From the NCBI RefSeq assembly GCF_029962605.1, contig NZ_CP124750.1, forward strand, positions 1,550,001 through 1,614,000: a stretch of 64,000 nucleotides of DNA, in the 5' to 3' direction. The position numbers and the translations under genes were made by a program. Below are positions 34,536-57,028 of the stretch, piece after piece. The notes below the pieces were generated by a model. It had not been told where the DNA came from and searched no databases. It worked only from the letters and a program-made list of their open reading frames with translations. The number at the start of each line of letters is the position of its first letter. Within the stretch, counting starts at the first letter, position 1. Source of the DNA: Serratia sarumanii. GTDB lineage: Bacteria > Pseudomonadota > Gammaproteobacteria > Enterobacterales > Enterobacteriaceae.

Positions 34536-34573
34536 CAGTACTTTGGTAGCTGCAAGCCAAGGGCGGTAGCGTG
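34536..34573 (+). promoter_or_regulatory. JUMPstart element with RfaH ops site
   Basis: The stretch from CAGTACTTTGGTAGC to the ops core GGCGGTAGCGTG (34562-34573) closely matches the JUMPstart element. JUMPstart recruits the antiterminator RfaH to paused RNA polymerase in O-antigen and capsule operons. It lies 60 bases before the first gene and predicts RfaH-dependent expression of the whole 22-kb cluster. Confidence 0.92.
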
Positions 34574-34632
34574 CCCGATTGAATCCCTTTGTTCACGCTG
34601 CGCAGGTGAATGCAGCGCTACGATGAATTGGA

Positions 34633-35535
34633 ATGAAAATGCAAACAAGACTCAAGGCAGTGATCCCCGTTGCGGGGTTGGGAACCCGTATGTTGCCGGC
34701 GACCAAGGCGATTCCTAAAGAAATGTTGCCCGTGGTCGATAAGCCCTTAATCCAGTACATTGTTGCTGAATGCGTGGCGGCGGGGATTAAAGATATCGTA
34801 TTGGTTACGCACTCATCGAAAAACGCGATTGAAAACCATTTTGACACTTCGTTTGAGTTGGAGGCCATGCTCGAAGCGCGTGTGAAACGCCAGCTCCTGA
34901 GTGAAGTGCAAAGTATTTGCCCGCCGGACGTTACCGTGATGCAGGTGCGTCAGGGACAGGCGAAAGGGTTGGGGCATGCGGTGCTGTGCGCCAAGCCAAT
35001 GGTGGGTGATTCTCCTTTCGTTGTGCTGTTGCCCGATGTTTTATTGGATGATTCTACGGCGGATTTGCGTAAGGAAAATCTGGCTAAAATGATCCAGCGT
35101 TTTGGTGATACGGGTTACAGCCAAATCATGGTTGAACCGGTGCCGGAACAAGATGTGTCCAAATACGGTGTGGTAGATTGCGCTGGCGCGACGATCGCGG
35201 CAGGAGAAAGCGCGCCGATGACGGCGGTGGTTGAGAAGCCGGCCCGCGAGGATGCGCCTTCCAATCTGGCCGTCGTCGGCCGATATGTGCTTGCCGCCGA
35301 TATTTGGCCGTTACTTGAGAAAACCCCTCCCGGCGCGGGCGATGAGATTCAACTGACCGATGCGATTGCGATGTTGATGGATGAGCAAACGGTGGAAGCA
35401 TTCCATATGAGCGGCAAGTCCCACGATTGCGGCGACAAGTTTGGCTATATGAAGGCGTTTGTGCAGTATGGTCTGCGTCACGGTACGGAAGGTGAGAATT
35501 TCAGCCGCTGGTTGAAGCAGACGTTAGGAAAGTAA
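34633..35535 (+). CDS. galU: UTP-glucose-1-phosphate uridylyltransferase, GalU-type
   Basis: 300 residues. It makes UDP-glucose from UTP and glucose-1-phosphate. The nucleotide-binding signature is the active form, VAGLGTRMLPATKAIPKEMLP. The stretches SKYGVVDC and KTPPGAGDEIQLTDAI are GalU-like rather than GalF-like. It is the first gene after the JUMPstart, the place usually held by galF. The ATG at 34633 and a second ATG at 34639 are both possible; the second has the better-placed GGAATG. A GalF-type paralogue follows 41 bases later. Another galU elsewhere in the chromosome is likely but not visible. Confidence 0.88.
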   Translation: MKMQTRLKAVIPVAGLGTRMLPATKAIPKEMLPVVDKPLIQYIVAECVAAGIKDIVLVTHSSKNAIENHFDTSFELEAMLEARVKRQLLSEVQSICPPDVTVMQVRQGQAKGLGHAVLCAKPMVGDSPFVVLLPDVLLDDSTADLRKENLAKMIQRFGDTGYSQIMVEPVPEQDVSKYGVVDCAGATIAAGESAPMTAVVEKPAREDAPSNLAVVGRYVLAADIWPLLEKTPPGAGDEIQLTDAIAMLMDEQTVEAFHMSGKSHDCGDKFGYMKAFVQYGLRHGTEGENFSRWLKQTLGK

Positions 35536-35576
35536 CAGGTTGTCGCCACCGCGGCTGAAAGCGATCACGAGATTGA

Positions 35577-54209: not shown

Positions 54210-55604
54210 ATGAACGGTTTCCGTCGGGGCGTGTTGCATACTAATGCGTCTCTTACTTCAATGCTTCAGCGCTTCTCTGATATTTTCGTTATCTTTAGCG
54301 GGCTGTACTTGTCTTGCCTAATCTCCGGTGCCGCATTTAGCGTGCAGCACTGGATTATGGTATTAATATCGATCGTTATCTTCCAAATGATTGGTGGGAT
54401 TACTGACTTTTATCGTTCGTGGCGTGGTGTGCGTGCGGGGCTGGAGATCCAGCTCATTTTGCAAAACTGGTCGCTGAGCCTGCTGTTGACCTCAGGAACG
54501 GTGGCGTTGATAAATGTCTTCAATAACGAGTATTCCGTCTATATCCAATGGTATCTGCTGGTCTGCTGCGGTTTGGTCATTACGCGCAGCGTGATCCGGC
54601 TGCTCTTGGGATACATGCGCAATATTGGTTTCAATACCCGTAATGTGGCCATCATGGGCGCGATGCCCGTCGGTATTCGTCTGGCAGAATCTTTACGTGA
54701 CGCGCACTGGATGGGATTTAAAGTGTTGGGCATTTACGACAACGATAATTCTCCGTTGAACAGCAAAATCGAACGCTGCGGCGACTTGTCTCAGCTCGTG
54801 AGCGACGCGAAAAGTGGCCGTATCGATAGGGTCTATATCGCAATGTCGATGGAGCAGGAAAAATTGATCAAAGATACGATCGCGGATCTTTCTGATACGA
54901 CCTGCTCAGTGATGCTGATCCCGGATATCTTTACGTTCAACATATTACAGTCACGATCGGAAGAGATTAATGGCGTTCCCGTCGTTTCGTTATTCGATAC
55001 GCCAATGAGCGGGGTTAATCAGGTAATTAAGCGTATTGAAGACATCATTCTGTCAATATTTATTTTGCTGTTCATTTCTCCGGTTCTGTTGCTGATCGCC
55101 TGCATGGTCAAATTTACCTCTTCCGGGCCCATCATTTTCAAACAAAGGCGTTATGGCATGGATGGCAAGGCCATCGAGGTATGGAAATTCCGCTCGATGA
55201 CCGTGATGGAAGATGGCGATAAAGTCGTTCAAGCGAAAAAAGGGGACGCGCGCCTGACGCCGGTCGGCTCCTTCTTGCGTCGTACCTCTCTGGATGAATT
55301 GCCGCAATTTGTCAATGTACTGAAAGGCGACATGTCGATTGTAGGCCCAAGGCCGCATGCCGTGGCACATAATGAACAGTATAGAAAGTTGATCAACGGC
55401 TATATGCTGCGCCATAAAATGAAGCCGGGTATCACGGGGTGGGCGCAGATCAACGGTTGGCGTGGCGAGACGGATACGTTGGAAAAAATGCAAAAGCGCG
55501 TTGAGTTCGATCTCGACTACATCCGTAACTGGAGCGTTTGGTTGGACATTAAAATCGTCTTCCTGACCATTTTCAAGGGATTCATTAATAAAGCGGCGTA
55601 TTAG
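54210..55604 (+). CDS. wcaJ: Undecaprenyl-phosphate glucose phosphotransferase WcaJ
   Basis: 464 residues from the ATG at 54210 (MNGFRRGVLHTNASL), the same length as E. coli WcaJ. ATGs at 54186 and 54108 are in frame but have no similarity. It starts the repeat unit by moving glucose-1-phosphate from UDP-glucose to undecaprenyl phosphate. There are four N-terminal membrane segments, a central domain, and a C-terminal bacterial sugar transferase domain (KQRRYGMDGKAIEVWKFRSM, RRTSLDELPQFVNVLKGDMSIVGPRPHAVAHNEQY, KPGITGWAQINGWRGETDT). Its presence predicts glucose (or galactose) as first sugar. Confidence 0.95.
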   Translation: MNGFRRGVLHTNASLTSMLQRFSDIFVIFSGLYLSCLISGAAFSVQHWIMVLISIVIFQMIGGITDFYRSWRGVRAGLEIQLILQNWSLSLLLTSGTVALINVFNNEYSVYIQWYLLVCCGLVITRSVIRLLLGYMRNIGFNTRNVAIMGAMPVGIRLAESLRDAHWMGFKVLGIYDNDNSPLNSKIERCGDLSQLVSDAKSGRIDRVYIAMSMEQEKLIKDTIADLSDTTCSVMLIPDIFTFNILQSRSEEINGVPVVSLFDTPMSGVNQVIKRIEDIILSIFILLFISPVLLLIACMVKFTSSGPIIFKQRRYGMDGKAIEVWKFRSMTVMEDGDKVVQAKKGDARLTPVGSFLRRTSLDELPQFVNVLKGDMSIVGPRPHAVAHNEQYRKLINGYMLRHKMKPGITGWAQINGWRGETDTLEKMQKRVEFDLDYIRNWSVWLDIKIVFLTIFKGFINKAAY

Positions 55605-55702
55605 ATTTTCTTTAAGGATGTCGCGCCTGGGAAATGTGGATTTCCTGATCTCTGGGGATGTTGAGACAGTTCATTTTTCTTTTAAAACTGGAGGTCGGTC
55701 AG

Positions 55703-57028
55703 ATGTTGACTAAAACAAACCGTAAACTGAGGTGCTGGAAGGGGGCGGCTTCATCGCTGGCCTTCGCATTGCCGCTGATGTTTATCAGTGCGAACGCCTT
55801 GGCTTTCGAAGTCGGGGTTCATGCGCATTTTCGCTGGTATCCCAACGATCCGGATAAATATTTGGATCTGATTAAGCGTTACGGTTTCACGTCGTATCGA
55901 GCGGATTTTCCCTGGAGCGGATTGGAACAGCAAAAAGGGCAGTATGTCATAACCGGCAATATGCAAAAGGCCGACCAAGCGTTTAACGATGCCCAGGCAA
56001 AATTTGGTCTGAATGGGTTATTAGTATTGGCGTACGGTAACAAACTCTACGATCCATCGGGTTATCCAACGACGCCTGAAGCCATTCAGGCTTTTGCCAA
56101 CTACGCGTATTGGACGGCCTCCAAATATAAAGGCAAGATCAAGTATTACGAGATCTGGAACGAATGGACGAATGCCACTGCGATTAAGCCGAAGCCGCGC
56201 ACGCCACCGCCGCCGGAGATTTTTGTCGCGTTGGTGAAAGCTACGGCTGCTGCGGTTCGAAAGGCCGATCCCAACGCAATTGTCATTACGGGAACGGCCA
56301 ACCCAACAGGAACTCGCGATCCTTCCTGGGTTGATAACATCGTTAAACTCGGCGTGTTGAATTACGTTGATGGTTTCTCCATCCACCCTTACTCCTATGG
56401 CAACGATAATTACGCTATACGGGCCCCTGAGGGGAACCTCGGCGTCGTGGATAAATTCGAGGCTCGGCTTGCAAAGGCAGCAGGTAAGACGGTGCCGATT
56501 TATATCACTGAAATCGGCGTGCCAACCTATGACGGTAAAGGCGGGTTATCAAAAGATGTGGCTGCGCAATATGTGGTGAAATATACTTTCCTGGCCAAAT
56601 CGCGGCCCTTTATCAAAGGGATATGGTGGTACGATTTGCTCGATGATGGAGACAACCCGAAAATCAATGAACATCGATTTGGGCTGCTGACGAGAAACGG
56701 TCAACCGAAGCCGTCGATGCTGGCTTTAAGTAAGGTCGCAGATGTTGCGCGATCGTATTCCGTTGAGAAATACCAAGTGCTGCCGGGCGGTAAAATTTCC
56801 ATCGCATTGAAAGGGAATAATCAACATGCGATGCTATTCTGGCAGGAAAAACCGGTGGCTAAGCCTGCCAGCGGTATTTCTTCAGGCTTGCGTAGTTTTA
56901 TGGCGAGTGAGGCGCCGCAAAACCAAAGTGCTACGCCGCTCAAAGAGGTTCAGGGGAATACGGCTGCACCCGATGGCGATGTACCGGTAATGATGCGCTC
57001 CAGTGCTCCGATTGCCTCGCCCTGGTAG
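55703..57028 (+). CDS. Secreted glycoside hydrolase, PslG-like (GH39/GH5-type fold)
   Basis: 441 residues from the ATG at 55703, with an AGGAGG-like site; the size is close to Pseudomonas PslG. A signal peptide is clear (SSLAFALPLMFISANALAFE). The barrel contains the acid/base motif KYYEIWNEWTNAT and the nucleophile motif PIYITEIGVPTYDG, two Glu residues in the clan GH-A arrangement. The last 80 residues are low in complexity (Pro, Ala, Ser-rich) and probably linker. It is likely a periplasmic or secreted glycosidase that trims or clears the locus product, as PslG does for Psl. Substrate specificity is inference from position. It is the last gene of the locus. Confidence 0.75.
   Translation: MLTKTNRKLRCWKGAASSLAFALPLMFISANALAFEVGVHAHFRWYPNDPDKYLDLIKRYGFTSYRADFPWSGLEQQKGQYVITGNMQKADQAFNDAQAKFGLNGLLVLAYGNKLYDPSGYPTTPEAIQAFANYAYWTASKYKGKIKYYEIWNEWTNATAIKPKPRTPPPPEIFVALVKATAAAVRKADPNAIVITGTANPTGTRDPSWVDNIVKLGVLNYVDGFSIHPYSYGNDNYAIRAPEGNLGVVDKFEARLAKAAGKTVPIYITEIGVPTYDGKGGLSKDVAAQYVVKYTFLAKSRPFIKGIWWYDLLDDGDNPKINEHRFGLLTRNGQPKPSMLALSKVADVARSYSVEKYQVLPGGKISIALKGNNQHAMLFWQEKPVAKPASGISSGLRSFMASEAPQNQSATPLKEVQGNTAAPDGDVPVMMRSSAPIASPW

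What the first reader, a model, noticed from the sequence alone, without database searches (positions are those of the whole stretch)
34536..57028. A 22-kb capsule-like locus with a nonulosonic acid module at the colanic acid position
Seen: JUMPstart/ops, galU/galF, wza-wzb-wzc, then neuA, a NeuB fusion, wzx, acyltransferase, sialyltransferase-like, GT4, wzy, two GT4, manC, manB, wcaJ and a PslG-like hydrolase, ending in a strong terminator. Known: E. coli has colanic acid genes at this spot, right of yegH. Inference: the polymer is a Wzx/Wzy capsule with a WcaJ-primed glucose, mannose and a CMP-activated nonulosonate. This combination, in particular a sialyl-type sugar in a mannose-containing Serratia capsule, is not one I recognise from described systems.
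Basis: partly seen in the sequence, partly recalled or inferred. Interest (0 to 1): 0.85.

Follow-up and report, generated by a model that had tools for sequence, protein, structure and literature searches.

The report
Known Serratia KL1 capsule gene cluster
This is the already published KL1 capsule gene cluster of Serratia marcescens, which makes a coat containing the sialic acid KDN; the part still unexplained is its odd multi-domain sialic acid synthase, relatives of which occur in many bacterial phyla.

Summary
The 18 genes from galU to the PslG-like hydrolase are the S. marcescens capsule locus KL1 (PMC9000132, 2022; PMC12077157, 2025). Gene order where the papers' text gives it, ORF number (18), cloned length (22,999 bp against '23.0 kb'), deletion interval (16,214 bp, exact) and neuB length (2,241 bp, exact) agree. 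Those papers report KDN as main sialic acid, a trace of Neu5Ac (about 1:20), Glc, Man and GlcA, and loss of sialic acid and capsule on neuB disruption.

What they leave open is NeuB: CBS region, NeuB, SAF and a fused epimerase-fold barrel. Relatives of this fusion lie in the 80 best of 177 matching loci, across phyla. Ten active-site positions are intact, but the SAF Arg that places the N-acetyl group of ManNAc is Ser in 65 of 66 fusions, against Arg in 28 of 29 other NeuB-family proteins. That fits KDN. The barrel keeps an invariant active site with Gln where its nearest fold relative has Glu. Its reaction is unknown; I favour supply of the mannose-type acceptor (about 45%).

The parts
34536..34573 (+). 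JUMPstart (ops) element
   Evidence: Rfam RF01707, 58.7 bits
34633..35535 (+). galU
   Evidence: NCBIfam galU TIGR01099 376.7 bits, cut-off 326.8
35577..36482 (+). galF
   Evidence: best NCBIfam match GalF, 463.6 bits, below that model's cut-off 534
36931..38067 (+). wza, outer-membrane export lipoprotein
   Evidence: Poly_export, SLBB, Wza_C; start read
38082..38516 (+). wzb, tyrosine phosphatase
   Evidence: LMWPc; Wzb NF007520 233.6 bits, just below cut-off 243
38529..40676 (+). wzc, tyrosine kinase / copolymerase
   Evidence: NF008568 1160 bits, above cut-off 1068
40765..41454 (+). neuA, CMP-nonulosonate (CMP-KDN) synthetase
   Evidence: CTP_transf_3 3e-26; first gene of the published CPSv region
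41458..43698 (+). neuB: CBS region (about 1-110), NeuB barrel (150-384), SAF (403-458), ketose-3-epimerase-fold barrel (462-746)
   Evidence: Pfam; AlphaFold2 model pLDDT 90.9; 2,241 bp as published
43699..44937 (+). wzx flippase
   Evidence: Polysacc_synt 7.6e-11
44934..45440 (+). hexapeptide acyltransferase (AT)
   Evidence: Hexapep
45488..46504 (+). candidate KDN transferase (weak polysialyltransferase-family match)
   Evidence: A-2_8-polyST 21.2 bits, below gathering 23.3
46533..47672 (+). GT4 glycosyltransferase a
   Evidence: Glyco_transf_4 / Glycos_transf_1
47672..49006 (+). wzy polymerase
   Evidence: Wzy_C 32.2 bits, gathering 31.7
49038..50099 (+). GT4 glycosyltransferase b
50096..51160 (+). 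GT4 glycosyltransferase c
   Evidence: start read
51218..52645 (+). manC, mannose-1-P guanylyltransferase / Man-6-P isomerase
   Evidence: TIGR01479 770 bits, cut-off 373
52709..54082 (+). manB, phosphomannomutase
   Evidence: CpsG NF011943 872.7 bits, cut-off 801; start read
54108..55604 (+). wcaJ, undecaprenyl-phosphate glucose phosphotransferase
   Evidence: NF007518 798.6 bits, cut-off 684
55658..57028 (+). PslG-like glycoside hydrolase; last gene of the locus
   Evidence: Cellulase 1.1e-11; 5jvk E 7e-31, PslG chains E 9e-14
57042..57079 (+). terminator-like hairpin with T tract
   Evidence: sequence, fold -21.6 kcal/mol

Best explanation
The stretch is the S. marcescens KL1 capsule locus. 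Shown by others for KL1 strain UMH9: the locus makes an acidic, Wzi-tethered capsule of at least Glc, Man, GlcA and KDN, with Neu5Ac at about 1:20 to KDN, and NeuB is needed for the sialic acid and for the capsule. Inferred: WcaJ loads Glc-1-P on undecaprenyl phosphate; three GT4 enzymes and the polysialyltransferase-like enzyme add mannose, glucuronic acid and KDN (about five residues by gene count); Wzx flips, Wzy polymerises, Wza/Wzb/Wzc export. KDN itself is made by the NeuB fusion: its NeuB-SAF part condenses PEP with a mannose-type aldose, having lost the Arg that places the N-acetyl group of ManNAc, and NeuA activates KDN with CTP. The trace of Neu5Ac is a side reaction, as no NeuC was found in the genome. 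The fused barrel most likely supplies or hands over the aldose (probability about 0.45); whether the acceptor is free mannose or Man-6-P is open. The confidence below is for locus identity and KDN as product.
For: Locus identity: 18 ORFs here and in pBAC-KL1; start of the intergenic region before galU, 34030, to 57028 is 22,999 bp against '23.0 kb'; neuA start to 50 bp before the end of the last ORF is 16,214 bp here and in the published deletion; neuB 2,241 bp in both; wzc-neuA and neuB-wzx neighbourhood from the paper's methods; G+C 47.5% against 47%. Genus Serratia: G019, drawn as same genus, has the contig length and fusion position of S. proteamaculans UME734. KDN chemistry. Acceptor change: Nm Arg314 is Ser in 65 of 66 fusions and Gly in one, Arg in 28 of 29 and Ser in 1 of 29 other NeuB-family proteins, none of which carries the barrel or the CBS region; E25, K53, Q55, K129, Y186, S213, H215, E234, H236, D247 kept 66 of 66. 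No NeuC: one NeuB; one Epimerase_2, 30 bp from a UDP-sugar dehydrogenase match, so probably WecB; no AGE-type epimerase.
Against: UMH9's own sequence and Fig. 3 were not seen; identity rests on order where stated, counts and lengths. The 66 fusions are one related group, so Arg-to-Ser is one inherited state, not 66 events; only the Serratia product is known. One protein without the barrel (L125) also has Ser. Other changes at ligand-near positions (Asn184 to Ser, Phe288) also occur in the controls and do not discriminate. The fusions gained invariant or near-invariant Arg167, Arg327 and Arg387 that could bind a phosphate, so Man-6-P is as possible as mannose, and a sugar phosphatase outside the locus would then be needed. 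NanE is present, so ManNAc-6-P may be available.
Confidence: 0.93

Rival explanations
1. NeuB is a Man-6-P-dependent KDN-9-phosphate synthase like those of Bacteroides and Prymnesium; ManC's isomerase domain supplies Man-6-P, a general cellular phosphatase removes the 9-phosphate, and the fused barrel is regulatory or acts later. (Rival on the synthase, not on the locus.)
For: The KDN routes in PMC6200933 (B. thetaiotaomicron, P. parvum, and the human enzyme in its Km table) use Man-6-P, and sugar phosphatases are said there to be redundant (passages); the fusions carry new Arg167 and Arg327; ManC here has the isomerase domain.
Against: No sugar-phosphatase family matched in the 18 ORFs (Wzb is a protein phosphatase); no HAD-type family among the 25 commonest of 90 Pfam families in 124 of 221 operon neighbours of fusions. 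An invariant barrel active site argues against a merely regulatory role. A KL2-like relative, G011, lacks manC and manB matches in its locus.
Confidence: 0.35
2. The locus is a new, undescribed Serratia capsule type with a nonulosonate of the legionaminic or pseudaminic kind.
For: NeuA scores best against PseF, though below cut-off; no sequence-level comparison with UMH9 could be made.
Against: Length and ORF agreement with KL1; no dehydratase, aminotransferase or NeuC-type family matched in the locus; published KDN.
Confidence: 0.03
3. It is a colanic acid locus variant.
For: Same side of a yegH-type gene, wza-wzb-wzc, manC-manB, wcaJ.
Against: No GDP-mannose dehydratase, fucose synthase or pyruvyltransferase family matched in the 18 ORFs; neuA and neuB present; KDN in the published polymer.
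Confidence: 0.01

Closest known systems
Serratia marcescens capsule locus KL1 (strain UMH9)
   Same: 18 ORFs, gene order where stated, neuA-neuB at the start of the variable region, 2,241-bp neuB, 16,214-bp deletion interval, 23.0-kb cloned span, 47% G+C
   Different: no difference found; sequence of UMH9 and Fig. 3 not available here
S. marcescens KL2 (strain gn773)
   Same: neuA-neuB, KDN plus trace Neu5Ac, Glc, Man, GlcA
   Different: KL2 has 16 ORFs in 20.5 kb and galactose; the related genome G011 has a 16-ORF locus of about 20 kb without manC and manB
Neisseria meningitidis NeuB (SiaC)
   Same: fold and ten active-site positions
   Different: Arg314 to Ser425, Glu134 to Asp245, Phe112 to Trp223; added CBS region and epimerase-fold barrel
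Bacteroides thetaiotaomicron / Prymnesium parvum KDN route
   Same: KDN as product; PEP plus mannose-type acceptor
   Different: there separate steps with Man-6-P and a KDN-9-P phosphatase; no sugar-phosphatase match in this locus
D-tagatose 3-epimerase-like proteins (3wqo, MJ1311)
   Different: the Glu of MJ1311's LENMP stretch aligns with an invariant Gln615; fused to NeuB in each of the 5 matching genomes of 398

Membership tests
S. [quoted passage not shown]
S. marcescens KL1 | 18 ORFs in a 23.0-kb span from the intergenic region before galU | tested here: met
   18 ORFs, 22,999 bp
S. marcescens KL1 | CPSv deletion interval of 16,214 bp; neuB of 2,241 bp | tested here: met
S. marcescens KL1 | sequence identity to UMH9 KL1 | not tested
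S. marcescens KL1 | KDN-containing polymer | not testable with these tools
   chemistry; published for UMH9
Wzx/Wzy-dependent capsule | Wzx, Wzy, Wza, Wzb, Wzc and a phosphoglycosyltransferase | tested here: met
E. coli group 1 capsule locus | wzi within the locus | tested here: not met
   no Wzi family matched in the 18 ORFs at E <= 0.001; the paper finds wzi elsewhere in the UMH9 chromosome
Colanic acid locus | GDP-fucose genes (gmd, fcl; recalled) | tested here: not met
   no such family matched in the 18 ORFs at E <= 0.001
Neu5Ac synthase of the NeuB type | PEP and metal site (residue roles partly recalled) | tested here: met
   ten positions 66 of 66 fusions
Neu5Ac synthase of the NeuB type | SAF Arg314 that contacts ManNAc | tested here: not met
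   Ser425; role of Arg314 from PMC6795526 passages
Neu5Ac pathway of bacteria | NeuC giving free ManNAc | tested here: not met
   one Epimerase_2 in the genome, outside the locus and beside a UDP-sugar dehydrogenase
Two-Glu ketose 3-epimerase (AP_endonuc_2 type) | two catalytic Glu residues (recalled) | tested here: inconclusive
   one aligned position is Gln615 in 66 of 66, Glu723 kept 66 of 66; register from sequence alignment to 3wqo only, not checked in the model

The most novel reading that the evidence does not exclude
The NeuB fusion defines a separate, widespread kind of nonulosonate synthase: one polypeptide in which an epimerase-fold domain makes or delivers a non-acetylated aldose (mannose from a ketose, or similar) and the NeuB-SAF part condenses it with PEP, so that only this protein and NeuA are needed to reach CMP-KDN from central metabolism, without NeuC and without the KDN-9-P phosphatase of known routes. 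The fused barrel and the Ser at the Arg314 position would then be a sequence signature for KDN makers.
Probability: 0.35. Interest if true: 0.55.

Novelty: already known. Interest (0 to 1): 0.22.

Why it matters
As a capsule locus it adds little: it places KL1 in one more genome and, by gene content, in three other Serratia species genomes. What could matter is the synthase. A 2023 sludge study states that KDN and Neu5Ac synthases could not be told apart because of how the genes are annotated (PMC10483923, passage); the fused barrel plus Ser at the Arg314 position is a candidate marker that can be tested with purified protein, and would point to possible KDN makers among cyanobacteria, nitrifiers, rhizobia and others (record titles).

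Tried and rejected
Colanic acid variant: rejected, no GDP-fucose family matched. New capsule type: rejected by the published KL1. Legionaminic or pseudaminic product: rejected, no dehydratase or aminotransferase family matched in the locus and KDN is published. A conserved partner enzyme beside the fusion: the most frequent other cluster is NeuA, present in 56 of 81 gene sets and in the same-strand run within three genes in 41 of 76 loci (many loci are cut by contig ends); methyltransferases, sulfotransferases, SDR and Gfo/Idh oxidoreductases recur only in sub-groups; in 124 of 221 operon neighbours no NeuC, NanE or HAD phosphatase family is among the 25 commonest of 90 (the other 65 were not listed). 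A stand-alone version of the barrel: none seen; 5 of 398 Pseudomonadota genomes (own included) match the barrel profile at 1e-10 and all 5 are fused to NeuB, but that search's first look may miss distant ones. Fusion in E. coli: no blastn match in that collection. Fusion on plasmids: 1 of 102 matching records covers at least 80% of the protein (Ensifer canadensis). Wider family: 2 of 392 sampled genomes at E <= 1e-100, both Serratia, one of them the window's own. Klebsiella K4, named in PMC9000132 as the first KDN capsule: the 79-type cps paper has none of the terms KDN, sialic, neuB, neuraminic in its main text, so no comparison was made. Literature on the fusion: the listings show no paper on a CBS-NeuB-barrel protein besides PMC9000132; I opened no other paper on the strength (from one search's list I later read passages of PMC6795526 for another point), and only PMC papers under open licences were searched. 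Fold rows other than epimerases (endonuclease IV, xylose isomerase) mean that other chemistry is not excluded.
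Full report
What is there. Eighteen ORFs on the plus strand from galU (34633) to a PslG-like hydrolase (ends 57028) follow a JUMPstart element (34536-34573) and end in a hairpin with a T tract. Families were assigned with Pfam and NCBIfam. To the left is a TerC/CBS/CorC gene on the minus strand. To the right, on the minus strand, is a 996-aa protein with a DUF4214 match, then a plus-strand ABC transporter gene and an HlyD-type gene. This is consistent with the four S-layer genes that PMC9000132 describes between KL and the O-antigen locus. 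The genus is Serratia: the genome called G019, drawn as same genus, has a first contig of 2,191,396 bases with the fusion at the same position as S. proteamaculans UME734.

It is KL1. PMC9000132 (seen: abstract, part 1 of 4 of the Results, the Discussion, and passages) defined KL types in 324 S. marcescens genomes, 152 of them KL1. Its UMH9 mutant removes 16,214 bp from the neuA start to the last 50 bp of the last ORF; the same interval here is 16,214 bp. Its neuB is 2,241 bp, as here. PMC12077157 (passages seen) cloned KL1 as an 18-ORF, 23.0-kb insert holding the whole intergenic region before galU; here that is 34030-57028, 22,999 bp, with 18 ORFs. I did not see Fig. 3 or the UMH9 sequence.

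What is already known of its function. In UMH9 the polymer contains at least Glc, Man, GlcA and KDN, with Neu5Ac at about 1:20 to KDN; neither acid was found in the mutant without the variable region. Mutants in neuB or neuAB had 4-fold lower sialic acid signal and lost the capsule, and were complemented.

The NeuB fusion. Pfam finds one CBS motif (12-55), NeuB, SAF and an AP_endonuc_2 barrel; KpsF/GutQ models match residues 12-108, so the N-terminus reads as a CBS pair. A scan of one genome per species found 177 relatives, of which the best 80 loci were kept, at 49-95% identity and nearly all over the full length, in Proteobacteria, Cyanobacteria, Bacillota, Actinobacteria, Verrucomicrobia and others by record title. 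Of 81 gene sets (80 loci and the window), my ORF caller placed the fusion in 77 and a NeuA relative in 56; contig ends cut many loci. Forty-one of 76 loci have neuA in the same-strand run within three genes. I aligned 66 fusions (65 of 80 loci and the window; the 15 loci left out are near-duplicates, partial, or not needed for diversity).

Acceptor site. Mapped on N. meningitidis NeuB (alignment), E25, K53, Q55, K129, Y186, S213, H215, E234, H236 and D247 are kept in 66 of 66. Arg314 is Ser in 65 and Gly in 1. Glu134 is Asp in 66. Phe112 is Trp in 63. In 29 other NeuB-family proteins from genomes of the same class (the 29 new loci returned, all high scorers; 79 of 185 genomes had a match), Arg314 is Arg in 28 and Ser in 1, Glu134 is Glu in 24, Asp in 4 and His in 1, Phe112 is Phe in 27. 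Three of the 29 lie in longer frames (535, 648, 719 aa), but none of the 29 has the barrel or the CBS region. Asn184 is Ser in 65 fusions but Ser or Thr in 28 of 29 controls, and Phe288 varies in both, so these do not discriminate. A joint alignment lists 31 positions kept in at least 62 of 66 fusions and in at most 5 of 29 controls, among them gains of R167, R327 and R387 and losses of Arg at 401 and 425. PMC6795526 (passages) says that Arg314 makes two main interactions with ManNAc that may place the N-acetyl group, that R314A is inactive, and that the meningococcal enzyme does not take mannose whereas the human one takes Man-6-P. Loss of this Arg fits a KDN-type synthase with poor use of ManNAc, hence the trace of Neu5Ac. 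The fusions are one related group, so this counts as one event.

Supply of precursors. The genome has one NeuB, one Epimerase_2 gene 30 bp before a UDP-sugar dehydrogenase match, which reads as wecB-wecC, one NanE and no AGE-type epimerase. No NeuC was found. Known KDN routes in B. thetaiotaomicron and P. parvum use Man-6-P and a phosphatase (PMC6200933, passages). No sugar-phosphatase family matched in this locus. I cannot decide between free mannose and Man-6-P.

Relatives in the genus. Of 30 Serratia genomes, 5 (own included) have the fusion. Three besides the window's (G008, G019, G020) have matches to all 18 KL1 proteins (wzy in G020 only from residue 123), at about 70-87% DNA identity along the locus (computed for G008 and G020). 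KL1-type loci are thus not confined to S. marcescens. The fifth, G011, has a 16-ORF locus of about 20 kb without manC and manB matches, agreeing with KL2 in ORF number and length; that it is KL2 is my inference. In G011 neuA, neuB and the start of wzx are 91-97% identical in DNA to the window (500-bp steps from 40900 to 43900), against 61-81% where aligned in the neighbouring steps from 35900 to 40400 and from 44400 on; the galU region is again 84-93%. I read this as a recombination block that moved the sialic acid module between capsule types.

Verdict. Known locus. The open question is the chemistry of the fused barrel and the acceptor of this NeuB subfamily.

Noticed in passing
window 40900-44400 against L087: neuA-neuB and the start of wzx are 91-97% identical in DNA to a KL2-like locus in another Serratia genome (G011), with 61-81% in the flanking steps and 84-93% again at galU: a probably swapped sialic acid cassette.
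   Followed up: partly
L087/L088 (G011): A 16-ORF, about 20-kb capsule locus with neuA-neuB but no manC/manB match; agrees with KL2 in ORF number and length. Its last protein (609 aa) has no Pfam match in the 478 residues scanned.
   Followed up: partly
L088 1756-4761: In G011 the SlaA-like gene points the same way as the capsule genes, opposite to the window, where it is convergent.
   Followed up: no
L089-L094 (G020, G019, G008): Matches to all 18 KL1 proteins in three further Serratia genomes, one of them S. proteamaculans UME734, so KL1 is not limited to S. marcescens.
   Followed up: partly
L128, L129, L130: NeuB-barrel fusions in frames of 646-652 aa without the CBS region, from one genus, still with Ser at the Arg314 position.
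   Followed up: partly
L125: A NeuB-family protein (352 aa) without the barrel but with Ser at the Arg314 position, the one exception in the control set.
   Followed up: no
L008, L010, L012, L013, L014, L015: In Nitrosomonas-type loci the fusion lies divergently from a conserved neuA / Gfo-Idh-MocA oxidoreductase / SDR trio (families read on L012 only); related oxidoreductase clusters recur in L057, L064, L078 and L081.
   Followed up: partly
L063, L065, L067, L069, L072, L074: In Synechococcus-type loci the fusion sits between DUF6716-type glycosyltransferase and sulfotransferase clusters (families read on L065 and L067), suggesting a sulfated polymer.
   Followed up: no
window 57235-64000: 996-aa DUF4214 protein (S-layer type) and type I secretion genes beside the capsule locus, consistent with the published S. 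marcescens layout.
   Followed up: partly
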